NCBI GenBank assembly: GCA_026129465.1
Contig: JAHCIA010000001.1
Coordinates: 1,497,964-1,561,963 of the forward strand
Length of the DNA stretch: 64,000 nucleotides
Origin: Flavobacteriales bacterium
GTDB taxonomy: Bacteria; Bacteroidota; Bacteroidia; Flavobacteriales_F; PHOS-HE28
Direction of reading: 5' to 3'
A program made the translations under genes and the position numbers. Shown here in pieces: positions 8,734-22,304 of the stretch. The notes under the pieces are model-generated. The model was not told the DNA's origin, did no database searches, and saw nothing but the letters and a program-made list of their open reading frames with translations. The first letter of the stretch is position 1, and the number at the start of each line of letters is the position of its first letter.

Positions 8734-9540
8734 TCAAAGAAAACGGGACAAGGGGCCGCCGCTCAATTCATCCTGTATGGTGCGCGCTATGCTGGCCGGA
8801 AGGCGATCCCGCCAAGCCGTATCAGGCCTTTCCAAACGATAGATGCTGTTGGCGTCCTCGCCCTGCCTGCTCCGGCTCTGTTCAATGAACGCTACGGTCT
8901 CCGGGCCGAGGTCAAGGGCACAGAATGCGAAAACGTCCCTGACCACCTCGATGGGATCGGCGTTCAGGTCCGCGTATCGCACCACCTTCACCTGCGATGG
9001 ATGCTCACGCTCAAGGTCCAGGAACAATTGCGCGACCTCCTTCCATTTGTCGAATCCGAAGAATTCCTCCGGTCTGTTCTGGTTCTTGCTGGCCCCGCTC
9101 CGCCACTCCTCATCCACATTCCATTCCGGCCTGAACTCGCGGGGAGCATGGATCCAACTATCGATCACCGCGCAAGGGTGCCGCACAAGACCCACCACCT
9201 TCAGCCCGGGCACCTGCTCCACCATACGGCGTACGATATGGTTGTATCGGACCTCCTTCATCACGATGTGGCTGGTGTCGGGTGATTCGGCCCACGATGG
9301 ATACTCCACGTGGATATGACCCACCTTCTGGAGCACGAAATCGTCCTCGGTCCGCTTGATGTCCTGAAAGAACCGGACGATCTCCTCACGCGTGCTGGAT
9401 CCGTTCAACCGACCCTTGAACGCATAGGAGAACAAGGGCTGGAAGCGGTATGCGACCCGCGGCGAGCTTCTGAATATCTGCCCAAGCCACGACGATCCGG
9501 AGCGAGGCACGCTTTGTATCGAGACCAACTGTTCGTTCAT
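8734..9540 (-). CDS. Sulfotransferase family protein
   Basis: A 268-residue protein with the two PAPS-binding signatures of sulfotransferases. The 5'-phosphosulfate loop is VPRSGSSWLGQIF near residues 10-22, and the 3'-phosphate motif is GLVRHPCAVIDSW in the middle. It should transfer sulfate from PAPS to a hydroxyl or amine of the glycan or its precursor in the cytoplasm. The start at 9540 is set by an ATGA overlap with the WbqC-family gene upstream and puts the P-loop at the normal distance from the N-terminus. It is one of three sulfotransferases in this cluster and is only distantly similar to the other two. The real acceptor could also be a lipid or small molecule. Confidence 0.8.
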   Translation of the reverse strand: MNEQLVSIQSVPRSGSSWLGQIFRSSPRVAYRFQPLFSYAFKGRLNGSSTREEIVRFFQDIKRTEDDFVLQKVGHIHVEYPSWAESPDTSHIVMKEVRYNHIVRRMVEQVPGLKVVGLVRHPCAVIDSWIHAPREFRPEWNVDEEWRSGASKNQNRPEEFFGFDKWKEVAQLFLDLEREHPSQVKVVRYADLNADPIEVVRDVFAFCALDLGPETVAFIEQSRSRQGEDANSIYRLERPDTAWRDRLPASIARTIQDELSGGPLSRFL

Positions 9541-10253
9541 TCCTCCAACTGGTATCTGGCCATCATGTCCAGGACCGAACTCCTCGAGTTCCACATGAGC
9601 ACATCGATCATGGACAGTCCGGGCTCAAAATGGCCCGCCGTGCCTTGTGTGTAGGGAACGATCTCCGAGCGCAGGAACCGCAAACGGATGCCGCGTTCCT
9701 TGAACCGCTCCGCCAGGTAAAGCTCGCGCCCCCCTGCTGGATTCACATAGAGATCGGTGCCCACCGCCCCGCAGATCGCGAGGATACGGTCCTGGCCATG
9801 CAGCTCCGGATCCAACCCCAACTCGCTCGCCCTTCTGATGGAACGGGGAGTGCCCAGATGATCGAGCACGAGCATCAACGAACGCTCCGCGGTATCCGCG
9901 ACACTCTCTCCTGGCAGCGCCAGGACCCGCTCGAAAATGGGGTACACCTCATCGAAGTATGGCGCCTTGCGATACGCATGACCGAGGGTGGTGAGCAACT
10001 TCCGCCGCCATCCGTCATCGGGTGCCACACGCGTATCGCGGATGCTCACGTTCTGGCTGCGCGCACTGAGCGGTATGGTGAAGAAGTGCGGGCCACCCTG
10101 CAAGAGCAGGCGGTTCCGGTTCACCCATCCCTTGTTGATGAATGCGGCATCATCGAGTGAGACGAAAGTGTCGGCGGCATGGAACAGCTGGTAGTATCCC
10201 AGGTAAGGGAACACATAGGGCTGCATGATCGCGGTACGACGCTCCTGGCTCAT
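9537..10253 (-). CDS. WbqC-family protein
   Basis: A 238-residue soluble protein matching the WbqC-like family, known from O-antigen and other glycan loci. The hallmark N-terminus is AIMQPYVFPYLGYYQLFHAAD, then a LDDAAFINKGWVNRNRL block. The biochemical role of the family is not settled; a part in making or attaching modified amino sugars has been suggested from gene context. Here it sits between two sulfotransferases and close to a sugar aminotransferase, which agrees with that idea. It is coupled to the downstream sulfotransferase by ATGA. Confidence 0.82.
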   Translation of the reverse strand: MSQERRTAIMQPYVFPYLGYYQLFHAADTFVSLDDAAFINKGWVNRNRLLLQGGPHFFTIPLSARSQNVSIRDTRVAPDDGWRRKLLTTLGHAYRKAPYFDEVYPIFERVLALPGESVADTAERSLMLVLDHLGTPRSIRRASELGLDPELHGQDRILAICGAVGTDLYVNPAGGRELYLAERFKERGIRLRFLRSEIVPYTQGTAGHFEPGLSMIDVLMWNSRSSVLDMMARYQLEE

Positions 10254-10309: not shown

Positions 10310-11329
10310 CTACCTGACCACATCCTTTCTCGACGCCGCGCGCTTGCCGATCTCACGTCGAAGCTCAAGCTTGCTGCGCAGGATCCCCAGTTCCTTTTCA
10401 TAATGCCCACGGTCGCGCCGCGTGACCCTCCTGCGCTCCATTTTGAGCCTGAACGCGTGGGCGAATGGAGGGCGCCATGCCCGCCGCGTGTCGAACTCGT
10501 AACCAAGTTCCTCCATGACCGAACCCGCCCTGGTCTCGATCATCTCGATCTCCTGCGGTGTGAGGTCCCTTCGATACTTCTTCGCATTGTCCCGGATGAT
10601 GGGCTTGTCGATATTTTCCCAATAGACGAATCGCCGTGCCGTTTCCTGCTGCTTCTCCGAGTCGGTCTGGAAACAGTTCTCCTCCACCGGCAGACCGCAG
10701 AACCGCAGGGCCCCGGCCATCACCTGGGGAGTGTCGGAGATCAGGTCCTCATAGCTGATGAAGTGCATGTCGACGCCATGGCGCTTGACCAGTTCCAGGC
10801 ACCTGCGCTGTTCACTTTCCCACTTCCGCATGGAATCCCAAACGGTCCTCAGGTGCGCGGGTTTCTTCTTCCAGGAGGCACAATGGTCGCGCGGATCCCG
10901 ATACAGGTACAGCAGCCTGCTTTCCGGCCATCGCGCCTTCACCTGGAAGGCATAGTTGAAGATGTGGTTCCCCTTGCAGGCGTAGATGGGTTTACCGTGC
11001 ATCCGCGCCTTGGCCCGGTAGATCACATCGAACGCGTCCCAGAAGCTCTTGGGTTGGTGCTCGCGAAGGGCTTCCGCCACATCCAACCGCAGGCCCCATT
11101 TGTTGAAGTCGTGGTTCGCGAACTCCATCATATCCTGGAGCAGGTACGCCATGTTCCTCTCCACCCGCAGGTCACCATAGTGGTGCAGCATGCCTGACCA
11201 AGAGTCGAAATAGTGCGGGGCCACGGGCGCCTCCACGCGCGAGTGGTTGCCCAAGAGGCTTCGCAGCAGGTTGCTGCCGGACCTTTCGGAGCCTACCAGG
11301 AAGATCGGGGCTGGATCGTTCGATCGCAT
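10310..11329 (-). CDS. Sulfotransferase family protein
   Basis: A 339-residue protein. The 5'-PSB loop is LVGSERSGSNLLRSLLGNH at the N-terminus, and the 3'-PB segment LLYLYRDPRDHCASWKK follows in mid-protein. This arrangement fits a PAPS-dependent sulfotransferase of the broad Sulfotransfer_3-like group. The C-terminal 60 residues are highly basic, perhaps for membrane or polyanion contact. It lies 35 bases after the aminotransferase gene and is cotranscribed with it. The acceptor is unknown; a cluster glycan is the obvious candidate by context. Confidence 0.78.
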   Translation of the reverse strand: MRSNDPAPIFLVGSERSGSNLLRSLLGNHSRVEAPVAPHYFDSWSGMLHHYGDLRVERNMAYLLQDMMEFANHDFNKWGLRLDVAEALREHQPKSFWDAFDVIYRAKARMHGKPIYACKGNHIFNYAFQVKARWPESRLLYLYRDPRDHCASWKKKPAHLRTVWDSMRKWESEQRRCLELVKRHGVDMHFISYEDLISDTPQVMAGALRFCGLPVEENCFQTDSEKQQETARRFVYWENIDKPIIRDNAKKYRRDLTPQEIEMIETRAGSVMEELGYEFDTRRAWRPPFAHAFRLKMERRRVTRRDRGHYEKELGILRSKLELRREIGKRAASRKDVVR

Positions 11330-12481: not shown

Positions 12482-13291
12482 CTAATGCTCGATCAGGTCC
12501 ATGGGGCGACCCATGAGATGGTCCAACGCTTCCAAGCCGGGCTGGAAATGTCGGTAAAGTTCAGCCTCCAACCCGGGAGCCATACCCACATCATATCCCC
12601 CCTTTCTGGGTGGAAGTGTGAAAGCGGAGTGGTCCGCGGGCAGAACTTCGATACCGCTCCATAGGCACAACTCACCCACCAGCCATGGCAGTCTGTCACG
12701 CATATCCCTGAAGGAGAACACCTTCACCCGGTCCTTCCCGAACAGGTCGACAAAGGGCCGAAGCTGTTCGGCGTATTCCCCATGGCGCAGGTAACTGGAT
12801 CCACCGGTGCGGGGTTCTCCGGCCAGTTCGCCACGCACCGCTTCCTCGAAGGACAGCGGATCGTAGAGGTGGCCCTGGACCGGATGATCCTTTTTGCGCT
12901 GGGACATCTGCCACGCGGAGAAGGCGCGCTTCACCGGATCGCGAAGCACAGCCACGATCAGAACTTGGGGCATCACCTGGTGGATGCGTTCGGCATAGTG
13001 TGCCTCCCACATATAGCTGGGGGTCGCCTCAAAGGTGACGAAGCGTCCGCCGAACCATGGCTTCCTTGGGAAGAGCTGGCGATAATATGAGAACCCCAAC
13101 CGGTGATCGGCGTTCCTGTCGAAGAAATGCAACTCCTTGCGCTTCGGTGGCAGGATGGACGGATGCTTGGACAGGACGTTGAACAAATGGGTCGTCCCAC
13201 TCTTCTGCGCGCCGATGATGATGAAGGAGGGCAGCATCCTGGGCGATACCACATCCAGCATGCGGCCCATACGGTAACTCAGTGCTCCCAT
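12482..13291 (-). CDS. Sulfotransferase domain protein
   Basis: About 269 residues from the chosen start. The signature IIIGAQKSGTTHLFNVLSKHP is the classical 5'-PSB loop of the carbohydrate sulfotransferases (PF00685-like, related to heparan-sulfate enzymes). It is followed by KELHFFDR and the 3'-PB motif VAVLRDPVKRAFSAWQMSQ. This is the best candidate in the cluster for true polysaccharide sulfation. The reading frame is open back to 13375, which would overlap the FkbM gene by 65 bases; ATG 13291 avoids this and leaves about 19 bases between the genes, but the start is uncertain. Confidence 0.83.
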   Translation of the reverse strand: MGALSYRMGRMLDVVSPRMLPSFIIIGAQKSGTTHLFNVLSKHPSILPPKRKELHFFDRNADHRLGFSYYRQLFPRKPWFGGRFVTFEATPSYMWEAHYAERIHQVMPQVLIVAVLRDPVKRAFSAWQMSQRKKDHPVQGHLYDPLSFEEAVRGELAGEPRTGGSSYLRHGEYAEQLRPFVDLFGKDRVKVFSFRDMRDRLPWLVGELCLWSGIEVLPADHSAFTLPPRKGGYDVGMAPGLEAELYRHFQPGLEALDHLMGRPMDLIEH

Positions 13292-13310
13292 CCTTCGATA
13301 CGTCAAGGTT

Positions 13311-14117
13311 TCATCGATCACTGGTGGCCATGAGGAATCCGCGGCGTGGATCCTCTTCATGCAACAGGACCACACGATAACGCAGTCCGTGAAGCAGCTC
13401 CATCACCCGGAATGTGCATGCCACGGAATGCACTTCGATCAGCAACACGGGCCGTGCATGGGCCAGGGTTTCCATGGCGCCATGCAAAACCATGTGTTCC
13501 GCCCCCTCCACGTCGATCTTCACAAGACCGATGCCCTGCCAGGCGTGCTTCTCCACGAGCGTGTCCAGTCGATGCACGGGCACACTGAAGGAGTGGAACC
13601 CGGCCTTGGTGTACACCTCCTCTGGTAGACTTGGACGTACGCCATGGAGATACCCGCCGGAACTCGTCTGGTCCTCGATGTTGGAGGAAGCGCGCATGTC
13701 CATCCTGCCATCGACATCGGCAAGCGCCATGGACATCACCTCGACCCGTCCGGCGATCGAGGGGTTCAAGACGAGTTGTTCGCGGAGGCGTCCCACGTTC
13801 ACCGGGTTGGGTTCGAAGGCGACAACACGCGCTTCGGGCCAGCGCATGGCGAAACAAAGCACATGGTAACCCATGTGGGCACCCACGTCTAACACCATGT
13901 CCGGGCGGATGGCGGCATGGTCCAACGCTTCGTGGATATGAGCATCGTAGGTGCCCGCGATCATCTGGCGGAAGGCCGGGGCCCGGTCGTTCACCAACAT
14001 GCGCAGGCCCTTGGCGGGGCCCCCGACCACCTCGTGTATGGCCGGTTCAAGGGGGGGTGGGGTCCTGGCATGGCCGAAAGGTCCCAGTCTGTTCCGCAGG
14101 CGATCGGTCCATCCCAT
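13311..14117 (-). CDS. FkbM-family methyltransferase
   Basis: A 268-residue SAM-dependent methyltransferase of the FkbM family. Motif I is DMVLDVGAHMGYHVLCFA, the acidic loop is VVAFEPNPVNVGRLR, and the family-typical VKIDVEGAEHMVLHG lies in the C-terminal half. FkbM enzymes O-methylate sugars or polyketides. The start at 14117 sits ten bases after the Wzt stop; a longer frame would run into wzt. Because it lies directly next to an exporter ATPase with a C-terminal extension, it may methylate the non-reducing end of the glycan; this is inference. Confidence 0.85.
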   Translation of the reverse strand: MGWTDRLRNRLGPFGHARTPPPLEPAIHEVVGGPAKGLRMLVNDRAPAFRQMIAGTYDAHIHEALDHAAIRPDMVLDVGAHMGYHVLCFAMRWPEARVVAFEPNPVNVGRLREQLVLNPSIAGRVEVMSMALADVDGRMDMRASSNIEDQTSSGGYLHGVRPSLPEEVYTKAGFHSFSVPVHRLDTLVEKHAWQGIGLVKIDVEGAEHMVLHGAMETLAHARPVLLIEVHSVACTFRVMELLHGLRYRVVLLHEEDPRRGFLMATSDR

Positions 14118-14127
14118 AGCGCAAGCA

Positions 14128-15384
14128 TCAGCGCTCCCAGCGAAGCTTCGGGTGGACCACTCCGGGGCGCCGCACGTAGGGCATGTCCTCCTCCCCCTCG
14201 TGCCGCATCTCCAGAACGATGGCGTCATTCACCTGGAAGATACGCCTGCCGTTGCGGCGGAAATGGGCCGTGAACCGGTAGCCTCCCTCATTCAGCAAAT
14301 GCGGCGGAATGATGCATGTGACCTTGGATCGCCCCGGCTCCCAGACCACGCTGTCCAACTCGCGCGCCATACTGGAGATGAAAGCCAGTACCTCGTTGTG
14401 TGTACTGACCCGCAAGGTGATGTCGAGATCATCGTCGATGATGCCCAGGTTGAGCAACTCGAACTCAATCCGGAGGGCATGACTGGTGAGCAACTCGCCA
14501 TCGGGGGCAAGGCTGGTGGCCTTCACCGACAACAGGCGCAACTCATCGGTACCCGGTGCATGTTCCGCTTCCCACTCCTGGGCATGGGTCTCCACGGCGT
14601 ATTTCTCCAGATAGGACCGCACCACTTCATGGGTGCCCCCGCTCATGCGCAACTCGCCCTGGTCCAACCAGATGGCCGAGTTGCACAGGTTGTGCACCGC
14701 GTTCACATTGTGGCTCACGAGCAGGATGGTGCGGCCACTGTCGGCCACCTTGCGCATGCTGCCCAAGCACTTGCGCTGGAACTCGGCGTCGCCCACGGCG
14801 AGCACTTCGTCCACGATGAGGATGTCCGGGTCCAGATGCGCCGCCACAGAGAAGCCCAGGCGGACCTTCATGCCGCTGCTGTAACGCTTGATGGGCGTGT
14901 CCAGGTGGTGTTCGATGCCGCTGAAGGCGATGATCTCGTCCAGCTTGCGCACGATCTCGGCCTTGCGCATGCCCAGGATGGCGCCGTTGAGGAAGATGTT
15001 CTCCCGGCCGGTGAGTTCGGGATGGAAACCCGTGCCCACTTCCAGCAGACTGCTGAGTTTGCCTTTGAGGCTGATGCGGCCTCGTGTGGGGAGGGAGATG
15101 CGCGAAAGGAGCTTGAGGATGGTGCTCTTGCCCGCGCCGTTGCGCCCCACGATGCCCAGGATGTCACCACGCTTCACTTCGAAGCTCACCCCTTGCAAGG
15201 CCCAGAAATACTGGCCCCGGCGCTGGCCGATGTGGGCCTTTTCCACCAGCAGGCGGGGGTCGGGCCTGCGGCGCATGCGCGCCCATACCGCCGACACTTC
15301 GTCGGTGAGCAATGAACTGCCGATGATGCCAAGCCGGTAGCGCTTGTGCACATCCTCCACCCGGATCACCGTATCGCGCGCCAT
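14128..15384 (-). CDS. wzt: Polysaccharide ABC exporter ATPase (Wzt/KpsT type) with C-terminal domain
   Basis: A 418-residue ATP-binding subunit of a polysaccharide/teichoic-acid type ABC exporter. Walker A is GRNGAGKST (about 80-88), the signature is YSSGM (168-172), Walker B is DILIVDE (187-193) and the switch His is in VSHN (about 225). Roughly 150 residues follow the nucleotide domain and look like the beta-sandwich Wzt C-terminal domain, which in Wzt proteins of E. coli O8/O9a recognises the modified end of the finished glycan. The gene is two bases from the permease gene. The domain predicts export of a preassembled, end-marked chain. Confidence 0.88.
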   Translation of the reverse strand: MARDTVIRVEDVHKRYRLGIIGSSLLTDEVSAVWARMRRRPDPRLLVEKAHIGQRRGQYFWALQGVSFEVKRGDILGIVGRNGAGKSTILKLLSRISLPTRGRISLKGKLSSLLEVGTGFHPELTGRENIFLNGAILGMRKAEIVRKLDEIIAFSGIEHHLDTPIKRYSSGMKVRLGFSVAAHLDPDILIVDEVLAVGDAEFQRKCLGSMRKVADSGRTILLVSHNVNAVHNLCNSAIWLDQGELRMSGGTHEVVRSYLEKYAVETHAQEWEAEHAPGTDELRLLSVKATSLAPDGELLTSHALRIEFELLNLGIIDDDLDITLRVSTHNEVLAFISSMARELDSVVWEPGRSKVTCIIPPHLLNEGGYRFTAHFRRNGRRIFQVNDAIVLEMRHEGEEDMPYVRRPGVVHPKLRWER

Positions 15385-15386
15385 GT

Positions 15387-16244
15387 TCAGACCACGTCAG
15401 CGAAGGACCTTTCGGCCCGTTGGAAGATGAGGATGCCGACCACCGTGCTGCCCACGGCGAATCCAACGGCGTAGAGCATGGTGCCCCAATCCATTGGGGT
15501 GCCCAGCAACACCGCGCGGAATCCTTCGATCACGGGGGTCATGGGATTGAGTTCGATGACGGTGCGAAGCGTGCTTCCCTCGGGCACCCGTGAGAGGGGG
15601 AATATCACCGGGCTCATGAACATGAGCAGTTGCACACCGAAGCCGAGCAGCACGGTGAAGTCTCGGAACTTGGTGGTGAGCGCGGACACCAGCAGGCCGA
15701 GGCCGCCGGCGATCATCATCAGCACGATGATGAGCAGGGGCAGCAGGGCGGCATCGGGACGGAAGCGCATGGTGAACTCGCCCATGAGGTGGAAGTAGAC
15801 CGCGAAGAGGGAGAAGGTGGCCAGTTGGGTGAAGAAGCTCACCGAGGCGGAGAGCGTGGTGGCCATGGGCGAGATGAGGCGCGGATAGTAGACCTTGGTC
15901 ATGAGCTGCGCGTTGAACACCAGGGTCTGCGCGGTACGGTTGAGCACACTGGCGAAGAAGAGCCAGGGGACCACACCGCTCATGTAGAAGAGCAGCGGAG
16001 GATACCCGGGCTCGGCCAGGCGGGCCATCATGCCGAAGACCACGGCGAACATGATGGAGGTGAGAAGTGGCTGCACCACCTGCCAGGCGGGGCCGAGGAT
16101 GGTCTGCTTGTAAACGGCGAGCAGGTCGCGCCGCACCAGCAGCTTCAACAGGTCCCGATAGCGCCACAATTCGCGCAGGTCCACCACCCACCATGGCCGC
16201 CGTGGGTCTATGACCACGTTCCAATGTTCCTGGTCCTTCACCAT
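15387..16244 (-). CDS. wzm: Polysaccharide ABC exporter permease (Wzm/KpsM type)
   Basis: A 285-residue ABC-2 family permease with six predicted membrane segments. An amphipathic N-terminal segment (WWVVDLRELWRYRDLLKLLV) is followed by hydrophobic stretches around residues 60-85, 95-110, 135-160, 175-200, 205-225 and 255-275. It forms the transmembrane half of the exporter with the ATPase directly downstream. NPMTPVIEGFR near the end is a conserved permease motif. It begins three bases after the tyrosine-kinase stop codon. Confidence 0.9.
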   Translation of the reverse strand: MVKDQEHWNVVIDPRRPWWVVDLRELWRYRDLLKLLVRRDLLAVYKQTILGPAWQVVQPLLTSIMFAVVFGMMARLAEPGYPPLLFYMSGVVPWLFFASVLNRTAQTLVFNAQLMTKVYYPRLISPMATTLSASVSFFTQLATFSLFAVYFHLMGEFTMRFRPDAALLPLLIIVLMMIAGGLGLLVSALTTKFRDFTVLLGFGVQLLMFMSPVIFPLSRVPEGSTLRTVIELNPMTPVIEGFRAVLLGTPMDWGTMLYAVGFAVGSTVVGILIFQRAERSFADVV

Positions 16245-16247
16245 CCC

Positions 16248-18677
16248 TCAATGCTTCTCCCTGCTCTCCCGCTCCTGCTTGCGGCGGCGGCGGCCGTAGC
16301 CATATCCGTAGCCATAGCCATAGCCGCTGCCATAGCCGTAGGCGTAGCGGTAGCCATAACCGTAGTTGGTGTTGTAGTAGTACTTGCTCTTCTTCATCCG
16401 CACGCCGTTGAGCACCAGGCCCACGTTCTTCACGGCGTGGCCCTCCAGGGTCTCGATGGCATTGTTCACGTGGTCCTTGTTCGCGAAGCGGGTGTTCATC
16501 ACGAAGAGGGTCACGTCGCAGTGCCGCATCATCAGCAGGGCATCGGTGATCAGGCCCACGGGCGGGGTGTCCATGATCACGTAGTCATAATCCCGCCGGG
16601 CTTCGATCAGCATGCGCCCCAGATGCTCACTCAGCACCAGTTCCGAGGCGTTCGGTGGTGTGGGGCCGGAAAGGATCACGTGGAAGTTCTCGTACTGGGT
16701 GGGCAAGACCACATCGCGCCAATCCACCTTGCCCACGAGCATGTTGCTCAGGCCGGTGGCGTTGGTCATGTTCAGGCCCTGGCCCACCTTGGGTTTGTGC
16801 AGGTCCAATTCCAGCAGCAGCACGCGCTTGCCCGCCTTGGCCAGTATGGCGCTGAGGTTCACCGAGCAGAAGGTCTTGCCCTCGTTGGGCCTGTAACTGG
16901 TGAGCATCACCACCTTGCCACCCTGGTCCTCCGGCCCGCGCACGTACTCCAGGTTGGTGCGCACCGTGCGGAAACATTCGGTGATGGCGGCCTTTGGATC
17001 GCTGTCCACCACCACGTAGTTCTCCTCGGCCTTGTCGCTGTGGATGATCTCGCCATAGACCGGCAGTTGCACCAGTTCCTTCAATTGCTCGGCGTTCTCG
17101 ATGCGGTCGTAGAAGACCACGCGCATGAAGACCACCAGGAGCGCCACCACCAGACCGACCAGGACGAAGACGTAGAAGATCCGGAGCTTGTCAGGCCGCA
17201 CCACGCCCAAGCTGCGGGCCTTTTCGATGACCTTGGTCTGGGGCACGATGCTGGCCCGTGAGATCAGGGTGCTGGCCCGCTTCTCCAGGAGGAAGAGGTA
17301 CATCTTCTCGTTCACCTGCAGCCTCCGTTGGATCCTCATCATATCCCGCTGGCTCTCGGGCATGTTGCGGATGAGCACCTCGTAATCGCGGATCTGCTTC
17401 TCCACGTCTTGCATCCGGCCCTGAACGGCTTCCCTCGCATTGCGGATGTAGGTGTGCAGATTGCCACGGATCAGGTCCATGGCGCGGTCCAGTTCGCGCA
17501 CGCTGATGTTCTCCTCCTTGCCGGCGAAGAGCATGCGCGTTCGCTCCATCTGCATGCTGTAGAGTTCGCCCAAGGTCTGCCGCAAAAAGGCATCGTCCGT
17601 GATGAAGACCGCCGGTGGCAGCAGACGTTCGTCGGTGGAGTTCTCCAGGTAGTCCTGCAAGGCGTCCAGCGAACCCAGTTCCAGGAGCATCTCGCGGCGG
17701 CGGTTGTCATAACGCACCAGTTCGCTGAAGTAGAGCTGCTCCTCCTTGCTCAGGTTGAGGATGTCCTTGCTCTCCTTGTAACTCTCCATCTCGGTCTCGT
17801 CCATCTCCAGATATCGGCTCACCTCCTCCAATTGCCGATCGATGAAGACCACCGTGTTGCTGTTGATGTCGAACTCGCTCTTGAGGGTATAGTCGATGTA
17901 CACCCTGCTGAGGGTGTCCAAAAAGGCCTTGGCCCGGGTGGCCACCTCGTCCTCCACGGTGATCTGCAGTATGGTGGTGTAGTCGTGGTTGGTGACCTGC
18001 ACGCGGTTCTTCCACTTGGCGATGAGGGCATGGCGGTCGTGCCGCACCAGGCGGTAGTCCGATTCCATGTGCTTGTCCAGGTTGCCCTGGTTCACATAGG
18101 GGTGCAGGGTTATCAGCACACGCAGTTCGCCGTCGTCGGAGGGCTTGCCGAACTCCAGCTTCCGCGAGACGATCTCACCGCCCCGGTCATAGCTCAGTTC
18201 ATAGGTGCGCAGGTCCAGGATCTTCATGTCCAGCGGCTTCTCGTAGAACCGCGGATTGGTCGCGTCCAATTCCACCGAGAAGGGCAGCGTGCCATGGACC
18301 TGCGAGGTTTTGAAGCGGCCCACGATGAAGTACGAGATGTCGAAGTCGAGCTTGCTGAGCGTGGTGTTGATGAGGTCGTAGCTGGTGAGCACCCGCTTCT
18401 GGTTCACCAGGTCGCCATAGAGCCCCGCATAGCCCAGGCTCTTGTACATCTGGGCCTGGTAGTCGTAGGTCTCACGGTCCTTCAGCAGCAGCTGCGTGCT
18501 GGCCCCGTAGATGATGGGCAGCTTGTAGCTGTACAGGTAGGACAGGATGGAGGCGAGGATGAGCGATACGACGACGAAGTACCAGTTCTTGCCGACGACC
18601 CGCAGGATATAGCGGATGTCCTTCGCATCGACGATGCCCCCGCGTGCTTGGGGTCGCTGTGGTGGTCTGGCGGCCAT
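16248..18677 (-). CDS. wzc: Polysaccharide co-polymerase / tyrosine autokinase (Wzc type)
   Basis: An 809-residue inner-membrane protein that sets polysaccharide chain length and couples synthesis to export. It has a Wzz-type periplasmic domain between membrane segments at about 32-50 and 500-520, with long coiled-coil between 280 and 460. The cytoplasmic BY-kinase domain has Walker A (YRPNEGKT, about 595-602), Walker A' (LLLELDLHKP, 620-629) and Walker B (VIMDTPPVG, 700-708). The C-terminus is a Tyr cluster with 14 tyrosines in about 30 residues, made of Tyr-Gly repeats, the expected autophosphorylation region. It is the first gene of the cluster, preceded by a possible promoter at 18765-18772. 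Pairing of this kinase with an ABC exporter rather than a Wzy/Wzx system is notable. Confidence 0.9.
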   Translation of the reverse strand: MAARPPQRPQARGGIVDAKDIRYILRVVGKNWYFVVVSLILASILSYLYSYKLPIIYGASTQLLLKDRETYDYQAQMYKSLGYAGLYGDLVNQKRVLTSYDLINTTLSKLDFDISYFIVGRFKTSQVHGTLPFSVELDATNPRFYEKPLDMKILDLRTYELSYDRGGEIVSRKLEFGKPSDDGELRVLITLHPYVNQGNLDKHMESDYRLVRHDRHALIAKWKNRVQVTNHDYTTILQITVEDEVATRAKAFLDTLSRVYIDYTLKSEFDINSNTVVFIDRQLEEVSRYLEMDETEMESYKESKDILNLSKEEQLYFSELVRYDNRRREMLLELGSLDALQDYLENSTDERLLPPAVFITDDAFLRQTLGELYSMQMERTRMLFAGKEENISVRELDRAMDLIRGNLHTYIRNAREAVQGRMQDVEKQIRDYEVLIRNMPESQRDMMRIQRRLQVNEKMYLFLLEKRASTLISRASIVPQTKVIEKARSLGVVRPDKLRIFYVFVLVGLVVALLVVFMRVVFYDRIENAEQLKELVQLPVYGEIIHSDKAEENYVVVDSDPKAAITECFRTVRTNLEYVRGPEDQGGKVVMLTSYRPNEGKTFCSVNLSAILAKAGKRVLLLELDLHKPKVGQGLNMTNATGLSNMLVGKVDWRDVVLPTQYENFHVILSGPTPPNASELVLSEHLGRMLIEARRDYDYVIMDTPPVGLITDALLMMRHCDVTLFVMNTRFANKDHVNNAIETLEGHAVKNVGLVLNGVRMKKSKYYYNTNYGYGYRYAYGYGSGYGYGYGYGYGRRRRKQERESREKH
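16293..16383 (-). repeat. Hexanucleotide (TATGGC-like) repeat coding the Tyr-Gly tail of the kinase
   Basis: On the plus strand this segment is built from units such as CCATAG and CCGTAG in register with codons, giving alternating Tyr and Gly in the kinase tail. The repeat is imperfect, with Ser, Arg and Ala replacements. Repeats of six bases keep the frame when they expand or shrink, so the number of phosphorylatable tyrosines could vary between strains. Confidence 0.75.
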
Positions 18678-18910: not shown

Positions 18911-19132
18911 ATGAAGATGTTGTTACGCAGTCTGCTTTTGGCCATACTTGTCGGTGGGTCATGGGGAGCCACCGCCCTGGCCGCTCCGCCCATTGGCGGC
19001 CCTCCGCCCTGCTGGCCTCCGCCCTGCATTCCGATCGATGGCGGGCTCACCGGATTGATCGTGGCCGGCGCCCTCCTCGGTGGCCGCCACGCGCTGGCCC
19101 TGCGCCGCACCCGCCGCAAGCCTGAACTTTGA
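18911..19132 (+). CDS. Short PID-CTERM-like exosortase substrate
   Basis: A 73-residue protein with a Sec signal peptide (cleavage expected after Ala24, in TALA-AP), a Pro/Cys-rich linker with a PPPCWPPPC core, then PIDGG (41-45), a hydrophobic helix (46-64) and a basic end RRTRRK. This three-part tail (short motif, membrane helix, positive cluster) is the layout of exosortase sorting signals, and the PID-G-G form matches what I know as the Bacteroidota PID-CTERM signal. The mature part would be only about 20 residues. Its stop overlaps the exosortase start (TGATG), so the two are made together. The most likely role is as the dedicated substrate, perhaps an anchor or carrier for an attached glycan; that is inference. 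Confidence 0.7.
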   Translation: MKMLLRSLLLAILVGGSWGATALAAPPIGGPPPCWPPPCIPIDGGLTGLIVAGALLGGRHALALRRTRRKPEL

Positions 19133-19692
19133 TGGCCGCCATGCCCACCCGCGCGGTGGTTTGGCGCGACCCGGTCATCCGTTTCTTCCTCGTTGCCGGT
19201 CTCCTCTATTTCGGCTGGTATCTCATTTACGGCCAGGTGTTGAAGCCCGGCGGAGCGGCCGACCGGGCCTTGATCGGCAACCTGGTGGAGGTCTCCGGCG
19301 CCATGTTGCGCCTGGCCGGCCATGAACTGATACCCGAACCGGCCAACGCCGAAGGTCTGCGCACCATCGGGGTCCAGGGTGGCCATCTCCTGTGGATCGG
19401 CAATGCGTGCAACGGCCTGGGCCTGTTCGCCGTGTACCTCATCTTCCTCATCGCCTACCCCGGCCCCTGGCGGCACAAGCTGTGGTTCGGTGCGGTGGGA
19501 CTGCTGGGCATCCACCTGATCAATGCCCTGCGCATAGCGGTGCTTTGCGTGGTGGTGAAGTACGACTACGAATGGCTCAACTTCAACCACGACTACACCT
19601 TCTATGTGGTGGTGTACGGCTTCGTGTTCCTGCTCTGGGCCATCTGGGTGAAACGCTTCGCCGGCCGGCGGCGGCCGGGACCCGCAACGTGA
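19132..19692 (+). CDS. Exosortase/archaeosortase family protein
   Basis: A 186-residue polytopic membrane protein with the transpeptidase-like triad of exosortases: Cys93 in NACNGLGLF, Arg134 in INALRIAVL and His153 in NFNHDYTFY. Exosortases recognise C-terminal sorting signals, cleave them and transfer the protein to another group at the membrane. About five to six membrane helices are visible. ATG 19132 overlaps the preceding stop by one base; ATG 19141 (MPTRAVVW) is an alternative. It lies between its likely substrate and a small membrane partner, and is divergent from the polysaccharide cluster. I cannot assign the exact Xrt subtype. Confidence 0.87.
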   Translation: MAAMPTRAVVWRDPVIRFFLVAGLLYFGWYLIYGQVLKPGGAADRALIGNLVEVSGAMLRLAGHELIPEPANAEGLRTIGVQGGHLLWIGNACNGLGLFAVYLIFLIAYPGPWRHKLWFGAVGLLGIHLINALRIAVLCVVVKYDYEWLNFNHDYTFYVVVYGFVFLLWAIWVKRFAGRRRPGPAT

Positions 19693-20141
19693 TGGGCAGG
19701 CGGGCCGCTATCCTGGCGATCATGGCCGTTGGCGTGGCCCTTGGCGCCCTGCGCGAATTCCTGCTCATCAACCTCAACTACCAGATCGACCATCTACGCC
19801 ATGGCCGCGCGGTGTCCTATGCGCACAGCGCGTTCCAGGCCTGGACGAAGGGGCTGGACCTTCGTGGTCTTGTGGTGTTGAAGTGGGGCATCTCCGCACT
19901 GCTGGTGGGCGCCATGCTGCTGCTGGCGGTGCTGCTGGCGCGCACGCTCTGGGGCGACCATCGCTACCGCACACGCATCATCTTCGGCTTCGTGCTGGCC
20001 GCTGCCCTGGCGTTGGCGGCGTATGGGCTGGCCGCCTGGTGGCCGCCCGCCGGCATCGCAGGGGTGAAGGTGCTGCACGCCCTGCAGTATCCAGTGGTCT
20101 TGTTCCTGCTCTGGGCCGCCTCGGGCATCCGCCGCGCCTAG
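19692..20141 (+). CDS. Exosortase-linked small membrane protein, function unknown
   Basis: A 149-residue protein with four hydrophobic segments (about 6-22, 58-83, 95-115 and 125-147). An aromatic/basic loop LREFLLINLNYQIDHLRHGR follows the first helix. The start codon shares one base with the exosortase stop (TGATG), so it is almost surely part of the same system. Small membrane genes are often found beside exosortases in Bacteroidota, but I do not recognise this one as the named XrtF-associated family. It could be an accessory subunit or supply the acceptor lipid; unknown. Confidence 0.7.
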   Translation: MGRRAAILAIMAVGVALGALREFLLINLNYQIDHLRHGRAVSYAHSAFQAWTKGLDLRGLVVLKWGISALLVGAMLLLAVLLARTLWGDHRYRTRIIFGFVLAAALALAAYGLAAWWPPAGIAGVKVLHALQYPVVLFLLWAASGIRRA

Positions 20142-20190: not shown

Positions 20191-20987
20191 ATGCTCATCA
20201 CCCCCAAGTTCGTCATGATCAACTTCCCCAAGACGGGAAGCACCTTCGCGCGCCGGGCTATCCGCGGCATACACCAGCCAGGCAGGGGGCGCAGGCTGCT
20301 TGAACGCGTGGGGCTGGCCCGGCCAGAATGTTCCGAGCTGCTCATGCGCCAGCGCTTCTTCACGCCCATGCGCGAGCGGAGCAACCTCCGCGTGCAACAG
20401 CATGGCGCCTGGTGCCAGATCCCCGAGGCATTTCGCGACCGCACCATCATGTCCGTGGTGCGCGATCCCATGGATCGCCTGGTCTCACTGTACGAGTATC
20501 GTGCTTGGGCCTTGATGCCTTTCCCCGAGGAGAAGATCGTCCGTCGCCATTTCCCGCATTTCCCCGATCTGTCCTTCGAGGAATTTTTCGAACTGTATCA
20601 GACGATCGCCCCTGAGTATTCCCTGCCCGAAGGTGTGCGCGGGGCACCGGGGCCGCTCACGGTCCAGTTCATCCGCTTCTATGCGCGCGATCCGCTGCGG
20701 ACGATCATGGCCTTGGATGAAGGCAGCGACCTGCGGAAGATGCGCAGGGAGCATTTTCCCGACATCGACTTCCTGCATACGGAGAACCTCAACGCCGAAC
20801 TCCACGACTTCCTCCTGCGCATGGGCTATCCGGAGGAAAGGGTCGCCGGCATCAAGGACATGGGCAAGGTGAACACCTCCACACGCTCCCGGCCGGACTA
20901 CCTCAGCGATGGGATGATCGACCGGCTGGCCTGGAGTGAACGATTCTTCTATCAACTCTTCCCTGAATATCTCGAACGGGTACCCGC

Positions 20988-20991
<4 letters not shown>
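20191..20991 (+). CDS. Sulfotransferase family protein
   Basis: A 266-residue protein. The 5'-PSB type loop [18 protein letters not shown] is near the N-terminus, and [19 protein letters not shown] matches the 3'-phosphate motif. These are the two PAPS-contact signatures of the Sulfotransfer_2-like group. The start at 20191 (MLITPKFV) gives the usual short lead before the loop. Its stop overlaps the serine hydroxymethyltransferase start by ATGA, an unusual pairing with a housekeeping enzyme. It sits just downstream of the exosortase locus, so its acceptor may be a surface glycan or glycoprotein, but this is speculative. Confidence 0.77.

Positions 20992-22304
<1,313 letters not shown>

What the first reader, a model, noticed from the sequence alone, without database searches (positions are those of the whole stretch)
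18911..20141. Compact exosortase locus with a near-minimal substrate
Seen: three genes joined by TGATG overlaps, encoding a 73-residue protein, an exosortase (Cys93, Arg134, His153) and a four-helix membrane partner. After signal-peptide removal the substrate would keep only about 20 residues before the PIDGG motif, with two cysteines in PPPCWPPPC. Known: exosortases process C-terminal tripartite signals and in Proteobacteria are tied to exopolysaccharide loci. Inferred: so small a cargo is unlikely to be an enzyme and may be a carrier or anchor peptide for glycan or lipid. The locus starts about 200 bases from the polysaccharide cluster it diverges from.
Basis: partly seen in the sequence, partly recalled or inferred. 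Interest (0 to 1): 0.75.

Follow-up and report, generated by a model that had tools for sequence, protein, structure and literature searches.

The report
Two-cysteine micro-peptide with dedicated exosortase
Three overlapping genes of a Bacteroidota bacterium encode a 73-residue protein, the exosortase that would likely trim it to a short peptide with two cysteines, and a membrane partner; across 39 genomes of the same family a 13-residue stretch of the small protein hardly changes, and elsewhere in the phylum such small genes often follow directly after genes for large proteins predicted to be exported to the surface by the type IX secretion system.

Summary
The locus is real as described. It is a divergent member of a catalogued, little-studied system: exosortase X (NF046081, 176 bits, cut-off 170), a PID-CTERM substrate (NF046080, below cut-off) and, by profile chain, an XrtX-associated membrane protein (NF046082). 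A tiny substrate is the norm for this family. Three features were in no paper I found. (1) PCWPPPCIP[IV]DGG is almost frozen: pN/pS 0.008 over 39 genomes, against 0.46-0.59 in its flanks. (2) Sampled exosortase-first, 131 of 137 XrtX-adjacent substrates of the class carry exactly two cysteines before P-x-D; the other six have none. (3) Elsewhere the small gene often follows, on the same strand, a large protein ending in a T9SS type A sorting domain (20 of 29, 15 of 22, 43 of 79, 8 of 26, 18 of 61 in five samples). The window's family lacks that adjacent cargo; there the genes diverge from Wzc (36 of 36 loci with enough flank). Likely mechanism: XrtX cuts at PIDGG and joins the Cys-loop peptide to an unknown envelope acceptor. 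The cut, the acceptor and the cysteine chemistry are untested. Verdict: new variant of a known kind.

The parts
18911..19132 (+). PID-CTERM microprotein, 73 aa: signal peptide (about 18911-18985), mature peptide, PIDGG, membrane helix, basic tail
   Evidence: NF046080 at residues 41-60, 19.3 bits, cut-off 26; 120 listed homologs of 54-123 aa
19007..19045 (+). near-invariant core PCWPPPCIPIDGG; Cys34 at 19010-19012, Cys39 at 19025-19027
   Evidence: pN/pS 0.008 over 39 genomes; exactly two cysteines in 131 of 137 XrtX-adjacent peptides of the class
19132..19692 (+). exosortase X (XrtX), 186 aa; Cys93 19408-19410, Asn131 19522-19524, Arg134 19531-19533, His153 19588-19590
   Evidence: NF046081 176.2 bits, cut-off 170; the only XrtX match of the genome
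19692..20141 (+). predicted XrtX-associated membrane protein, 149 aa, four membrane helices
   Evidence: no direct family match; profile chain to NF046082 relatives; AF2 pLDDT 95.1
16248..18677 (-). Wzc-like polysaccharide co-polymerase/tyrosine kinase, divergent neighbour
   Evidence: TIGR01007 162.5 bits, cut-off 108; divergent in 36 of 36 family loci with enough flank
15387..16244 (-). ABC-2 polysaccharide export permease
   Evidence: PF01061; in 27 of 38 family loci
14128..15384 (-). ABC exporter ATPase
   Evidence: PF00005; in 25 of 38 family loci
20988..22304 (+). glyA, syntenic marker downstream, not part of the system
   Evidence: PF00464; found in 21 of 38 family loci and 36 of 61 other pattern loci

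Best explanation
The three genes encode a PID-CTERM microprotein, the only XrtX exosortase found in this genome and a predicted XrtX-associated membrane partner, and XrtX likely cuts the microprotein at PIDGG and joins the resulting roughly 15-residue two-cysteine peptide to an envelope molecule that would be exported to the cell surface. Inferred steps: Sec export and signal peptidase remove the first 24-25 residues; Cys93 attacks beside P-I-D and holds the peptide as a thioester, with Arg134 and His153 assisting; the peptide is passed to an acceptor (lipid or polysaccharide) while the membrane helix is discarded; the two cysteines close a small Pro-rich ring or bind another thiol. Shown here: the one-to-one pair in this genome, the near-frozen peptide, the two-or-none cysteine pattern, and, elsewhere in the phylum, the tight arrangement of such small genes behind T9SS type A cargo genes. 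My reading is that the peptide is an anchor or tag for surface material: a T9SS cargo encoded in cis in many lineages, and in this family either capsule-like polysaccharide (Wzc neighbour) or T9SS cargo encoded elsewhere in the genome.
For: One XrtX and one clear PID-CTERM in a 99.7% complete genome: of 19 P[IV]DGG places only the window's is followed by a clear membrane helix, basic tail and stop, judged by eye. XrtX in 40 of 45 family genomes, 29 of 30 high-quality; the five without it also gave no PID-CTERM match. Core pN/pS 0.0078 against 0.586 before and 0.464 after. Exactly two cysteines in 131 of 137. CWPPPC persists where XrtX is only 31% identical to the window's. T9SS type A tail directly upstream, same strand: 20 of 29, 15 of 22, 43 of 79; 17 of 17 tails or cargos given to TIGR04183 pass its cut-off. 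Relatives of a partner cargo module are encoded elsewhere in the window's genome (3 matches) and in 30 of 44 family genomes. In F. johnsoniae, deleting xrtF or its adjacent partner gene gave the same phenotypes: much less biofilm, zorbs abolished (PMC10936215, passages read).
Against: No acceptor, cleavage site or anchor was observed. The window's substrate misses the PID-CTERM cut-off and the third gene has no direct family match. The window's family has no T9SS cargo beside the operon (0 in 480 kb), so the cargo link is from relatives; it is weaker in two samples (8 of 26 and 18 of 61). Pfam's T9SS tail model passes its own cut-off in only 3 of 10 cargos or tails given to it. Cys-less PID peptides exist (L104, L137, L157, L452, L336, L437; the 30 of L163-L192; 5 of 24), so the cysteines are not needed for XrtX processing as such. 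Wzc adjacency is not universal in the class (32 of 64 divergent, 3 more on the same strand).
Confidence: 0.5

Rival explanations
1. The peptide is a released signal or structural peptide: XrtX only cuts, and the Cys-loop peptide leaves the cell as a small disulfide-ring factor.
For: Small size, Cys pair, Pro-rich loop and extreme constraint suit a peptide that is itself recognised; no acceptor gene is apparent.
Against: A near-frozen sequence across 39 genomes is unlike fast-changing signalling peptides (recalled); I saw no receptor-like gene kept beside the pair in the window genes traced; cargo and Wzc neighbours point to the envelope.
Confidence: 0.17
2. Split anchor: the XrtX-processed peptide forms a disulfide with its T9SS partner cargo and so tethers it.
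For: Cargo gene directly upstream. Cargo beside Cys-pair peptides has a Cys pair near -133/-90 from its end in 48 of 80, against 2 of 20 other T9SS tails of the same genomes (p 9e-5) and 0 of 27 beside Cys-less peptides.
Against: The -133/-90 windows were chosen after seeing the alignment. 20 of the 80 have one and 12 neither; L256 and L329 have no Cys at all in the last 460 and 395 residues. Cys-less cargos are mostly of one Cys-poor lineage. The window has no cargo in cis, and none of five trans relatives read has that pair.
Confidence: 0.15
3. Accessory role: the small protein is a subunit or regulator of XrtX or of Wzc, and cutting is incidental; true substrates are others.
For: Overlaps XrtX and lies beside Wzc; fixed small size.
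Against: Carries a full tripartite sorting signal; in other genomes 1-9 such genes occur, many away from XrtX and behind cargo genes; no other clear PID-CTERM in the window's genome.
Confidence: 0.1
4. Cysteine lipidation as proposed for MYXO-CTERM: a Cys next to the cut site is acylated before cleavage.
For: The second Cys lies 0-2 residues before P-x-D; MYXO-CTERM has an invariant Cys needed for cleavage (PMC11980579, passages read).
Against: Two cysteines or none, never one in the mature part as I cut it; Cys-less PID peptides occur in genomes with XrtX; different enzyme family.
Confidence: 0.08

Closest known systems
XrtX / PID-CTERM / XrtX-associated membrane protein (NCBIfam NF046081, NF046080, NF046082)
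   Same: Exosortase over cut-off, PID motif with membrane helix and basic tail, third gene related to the associated protein by profile chain
   Different: Substrate below the model cut-off, with a Cys loop and a one-to-one pair; only the models' names were seen, not their full descriptions
XrtF and exosortase F system-associated protein (TIGR04128, TIGR04127; Fjoh_1448/1449)
   Same: Exosortase plus adjacent membrane partner gene; partners linked by profile through relatives (96.1%)
   Different: Window's XrtX scores 74.6, below the XrtF cut-off 90; direct profile comparison of the third proteins fails (0.3%); XrtF targets not known (PMC12188702, passages read)
PEP-CTERM / EpsH (XrtA) systems
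   Same: Tripartite C-terminal signal, exosortase, polysaccharide neighbourhood
   Different: PEP motif absent; substrate has almost no cargo
MYXO-CTERM / myxosortase
   Same: Cys beside the cleavage motif, membrane helix, basic tail
   Different: Unrelated protease and one invariant Cys (PMC11980579, passages read)
T9SS type A cargo attachment by PorU
   Same: Partner cargos in relatives carry the type A sorting domain
   Different: Here a separate exosortase substrate gene sits directly behind the cargo gene
Pfam PF28310
   Same: Listed as precomputed domain for most of the 120 listed homologs of the small protein
   Different: Gave no match with the Pfam copy searched; its name and text were not seen

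Membership tests
Exosortase X (NF046081) | score over the curated cut-off of 170 bits | tested here: met
   176.2 bits
Exosortase X (NF046081) | conserved Cys, Arg, His of exosortases | tested here: met
   C93 234/236, R134 236/236, H153 231/236
Exosortase X (NF046081) | proteolysis or transpeptidation at the PID motif | not testable with these tools
   no experiment; no relative among solved structures by sequence or by fold at E 0.001
PID-CTERM (NF046080) | score over the curated cut-off of 26 bits | tested here: not met
   19.3 bits, 23.4 bits in the genome search
PID-CTERM (NF046080) | P-[IV]-D motif, membrane helix and basic tail at the C-terminus | tested here: met
   sequence; the only clear such place among 19 P[IV]DGG sites
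XrtX-associated membrane protein (NF046082) | score over the curated cut-off of 75 bits | tested here: not met
   no match for the window's protein
XrtX-associated membrane protein (NF046082) | homology shown by profiles | tested here: inconclusive
   family profile to non-family relatives 99.5%, E 3.7e-23; two such relatives score 71.9 and 60.5 against NF046082, just below the cut-off
PEP-CTERM substrate | PEP motif | tested here: not met
   motif is PIDGG; NF046080 is the only NCBIfam match of the small protein at E 1
T9SS type A cargo partner | T9SS cargo gene directly upstream | tested here: not met
   0 of 38 family loci; Wzc instead

The most novel reading that the evidence does not exclude
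XrtX systems build a two-protein surface anchor: the exosortase makes a tiny Cys-ring peptide, fixes it to an envelope glycan or lipid, and a T9SS-exported cargo from the same operon (or, in this family, elsewhere in the genome) is then caught by that peptide. The sorting signal and its cargo would be separate genes, joined only after export.
Probability: 0.25. Interest if true: 0.92.

Novelty: new variant of a known kind. Interest (0 to 1): 0.72.

Why it matters
No exosortase acceptor is named in the passages read here, and the exosortase-substrate link in Bacteroidota is untested there. In this locus the whole substrate is about the size of a synthetic peptide, one per genome, almost frozen in sequence, with two traceable cysteines. 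That makes the open question (what does an exosortase attach its substrate to?) directly testable by peptide mass spectrometry. If the arrangement behind T9SS cargo genes reflects joint action, it would connect two surface-display systems.

Tried and rejected
Rejected: (a) 'the tiny substrate is unusual': the best PID-CTERM match of each of 30 other genomes lies in a frame of 153 residues or less (one 995-residue frame). (b) Second substrates in the genome: the two weak NF046080 matches are not PID C-termini; of the 19 P[IV]DGG sites one other (L488) ends 28 residues after the motif in a partly hydrophobic stretch without a clear helix or a basic end in the part seen. (c) A strict cargo-peptide cysteine coupling: first seen, then weakened by controls (2 of 20 tails elsewhere and 3 of 34 other tails in fetched loci also have the pair); kept as a rival only. 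(d) Fold clues: no PDB match at E 0.001 or better for the partner or XrtX. (e) hhalign of the window family's third protein straight to XrtF partners: 0.3% probability; only the chain works. The first hhalign script read the wrong output line; repeated. (f) First PID detectors missed P-[IL]-N variants; found. (g) Wzc as a universal partner: 35 of 64 class loci with 3 kb upstream.

Rows dropped or counted apart: L102 (contig edge). Of the 135 class genomes, 15 are of the window's family and 100 are in the class set; the other 20 were seen in other sets (G677, G709, G596, G089 in the order set, all Cys pair; G116, G317, G159, G515 as L104, L137, L157, L452, all Cys-less and added to the total of 137; G210, G230, G135, G162, G545, G553, G638 no adjacent PID seen), not fetched (G093, G190, G097, G147) or not used (G719, stops in XrtX). 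Of 104 genomes with a match only the best 30 were read. Second XrtX copies L449-L451 and L456 were not counted. Two cargo tails were too short; L222 lies at a stretch edge. L103-L162 and L163-L192 overlap in genomes, and pattern loci and XrtX-first loci overlap in contigs, so counts from different samples must not be added. The seed of my T9SS tail profile came from loci in L457-L473, so L163-L192 is the independent set.

Full report
What is there. The second protein is exosortase X (NF046081, 176.2 bits against a cut-off of 170; XrtF only 74.6 against 90). The first protein matches the PID-CTERM model over residues 41-60 but below its cut-off (19.3 against 26). The third has no direct family match. 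Two of its counterparts outside the family score 71.9 and 60.5 against NF046082, XrtX-associated membrane protein (cut-off 75), and the family profile aligns with the non-family profile at 99.5%, E 3.7e-23. So the system is catalogued by NCBIfam; this is a divergent member of it.

Catalytic residues. Cys93, Arg134 and His153 are kept in 234, 236 and 231 of 236 aligned XrtX rows, and Asn131 in 236. AlphaFold2 gives confident models (XrtX pLDDT 89.4, third protein 95.1), but no solved structure matches XrtX by sequence or either model by fold at E 0.001.

One enzyme, one substrate. The window's genome (3.88 Mb, 99.7% complete) has one XrtX match. Of 19 places that read P[IV]DGG, only the window's is followed by a clear membrane helix, basic tail and stop, judged by eye. 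In the family, 40 of 45 genomes have XrtX (29 of 30 high-quality); none of the five without it gave a PID-CTERM match, although four of those five are 73-85% complete.

A near-frozen peptide. Thirty-nine family loci were fetched by their exosortase, not by the small gene. Thirty-eight carry PCWPPPCIP[IV]DGG directly upstream; in L102 the contig ends inside XrtX. With the window, 39 genomes give 38 distinct DNA versions of these 13 codons; synonymous sites differ freely (pS 0.63), protein-changing ones almost never (pN 0.0049, ratio 0.0078), against 0.586 in the 11 codons before and 0.464 in the 18 after. The ratio before the core is inflated by unaligned length differences.

Two cysteines or none. 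To avoid the bias of searching with the peptide, I sampled XrtX first: 395 genomes of the class (135 with a match at E 1e-30, 102 over cut-off) and 199 of the order of G089 (104 at E 1e-20, of which the best 30 were read). Of 100 class loci, 30 order loci and 38 family loci counted, 69, 26 and 38 show an adjacent PID gene. Of these 133, 131 have exactly two cysteines in the mature part, as C-x(3-8)-C-x(0-2)-P-x-D; L437 has none, and the single Cys of L336 lies in its signal peptide as I read it. Four more class genomes of the same draw, looked at in other sets, have Cys-less adjacent PIDs (L104, L137, L157, L452), so the class total is 131 of 137. CWPPPC is the commonest form and is found where XrtX is only 31% identical to the window's. 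In 31 class genomes where the first detector saw no adjacent PID gene, 23 had one by family search (some beside XrtX after all); of the 24 genes, 19 have the Cys pair and 5 none. Outside the class, L145 and the 30 PID genes of L163-L192 (best match per genome, a few of them class members) have no Cys pair. On a FastTree tree of 201 XrtX rows, the 139 labelled ones need three changes between the two states; 29 Cys-less labels there come from a PID gene anywhere in the genome. An exact pattern scan of 84,980 species genomes for PCWPPPCxP[IV]DG found 98 stretches, 86 with an XrtX-like frame right beside it; one of the other 12 is cut off and one has XrtX 1.2 kb away.

The unexpected neighbour. 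In f84, f60, f61 and f62 genomes the frame directly upstream of the PID gene mostly ends in a T9SS type A sorting domain. All seven sequences first tested and ten more later, six of them from an independent set, pass the TIGR04183 cut-off of 23 bits; Pfam's model of the same tail passes its stricter cut-off in 3 of 10. Counted with a profile of my own: 20 of 29 PID genes in L163-L192 (30 loci, 29 read) and 15 of 22 in L457-L480 (24 loci, 22 read) have such a frame upstream on the same strand, none on the other strand. In XrtX-first and pattern loci, which overlap, 65 of 203; four more have a tail only on the other strand. With a refined profile: class XrtX-first loci 43 of 79, order sample 8 of 26, pattern loci outside the family 18 of 61. 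The stop of the cargo lies about 120-300 bases before the PID motif in nearly all, so the genes almost touch. Twenty genomes checked hold 48 to at least 150 such tails (150 is a cap on what was scored). With an assumed rate of 5% of genes, 20 of 29 has a binomial p of 6e-20 (loci are not independent). Background: 0 in 480 kb of family loci, 8 in 928 kb of other XrtX loci.

The window's branch. In the family no cargo stands beside the operon. Instead Wzc diverges from it in every locus with enough flank (32 of 32 with 2 kb; 36 of 38, two short), followed by an ABC permease and ATPase in most. In the wider class some loci have Wzc, then cargo, then PID (8 of 79), so the window's order may be what is left after loss of the cargo; this is inference. 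Relatives of a partner cargo's C-terminal module exist in trans: three in the window's genome (E 4e-18 to 8e-11, 26-30% identity) and at least one in 30 of 44 family genomes.

A tempting link that held only in part. Cargo beside Cys-pair peptides often has its own Cys pair about 133 and 90 residues from the end (positions chosen after seeing the alignment): 48 of 80, with one in 20 and none in 12; 0 of 27 beside Cys-less peptides; 2 of 20 among other T9SS tails of the same genomes and 3 of 34 among other tails in fetched loci. But L256 and L329 have Cys-pair peptides and no cargo Cys in the part aligned, most Cys-less cargos are from one lineage, and five trans relatives from the window's family have cysteines at other places. 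I therefore do not claim a peptide-cargo disulfide.

How it likely works. Shown: gene order, conservation, pairing and neighbours. Inferred: export, signal-peptide removal, XrtX cleavage at PIDGG by Cys93, transfer of the peptide to an envelope acceptor, ring closure by the two cysteines. Support from the literature is indirect. Deleting xrtF or the adjacent partner gene in F. johnsoniae gave the same phenotypes, much less biofilm and no zorbs (PMC10936215, passages read). A Nostoc exosortase is needed for motility and biofilm, and its authors consider linkage to polysaccharide or another molecule (PMC12188702, passages read). Transfer to a new moiety by exosortases is given as a suggestion or proposal in PMC11980579 and PMC7468200 (passages read).

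What is in print. Searches of 5.39 million open papers for exosortase or PID-CTERM (30 of 75 listed), XrtX, exosortase X, PID-CTERM or XrtF, exosortase with Wzc and Bacteroidetes (none), exosortase with type IX secretion and exosortase with short peptide or cysteine listed no paper whose title, abstract start or read passages describe these peptides, their cysteines or their place behind T9SS cargo; PID-CTERM occurs in none of the papers. Four papers hold both exosortase and type IX secretion; I read passages of two (PMC7468200, PMC10936215). Most subscription papers are not in that library, and the 2012 exosortase survey was not held. PF28310 is listed for most homologs, so the small family has been noticed by Pfam; its text was not seen.

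Noticed in passing
window 8734-9594, 10310-11329, 12482-13375 (-), 20191-20991 (+): Four sulfotransferase-like genes in and beside the polysaccharide cluster, with FkbM methyltransferase, WbqC and DegT genes: the exported polymer may be sulfated.
   Followed up: no
L203 and L244 (DTRI01, isolate UWMA-0021): One MAG holds two Cys-loop PID genes, one beside XrtX and one without XrtX in its 8 kb stretch.
   Followed up: no
L464, L471, L475, L476, L478: PID motif varies to P-I-N or P-L-N, with and without the Cys pair.
   Followed up: partly
L282 (CAMCAZ010000031.1, 42,529 bases) and L085 (G043:C31, 42,529 bases): A MAG titled Chryseobacterium gleum has a contig of the same length and the same small protein as a genome of the window's family, so its title is probably wrong.
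   Followed up: no
G000:C1:117268-118350, 130531-131619, 2686901-2688004: Three very long frames (1,406-4,310 aa) in the window's genome carry a module related to the PID-partner cargo of other genomes.
   Followed up: partly
L378, L385, L396, L401, L425: A further neighbour type: PID-XrtX next to an undecaprenyl-diphosphate-synthase-like and a BamA-like frame on the other strand (named from recall of their sequence).
   Followed up: no
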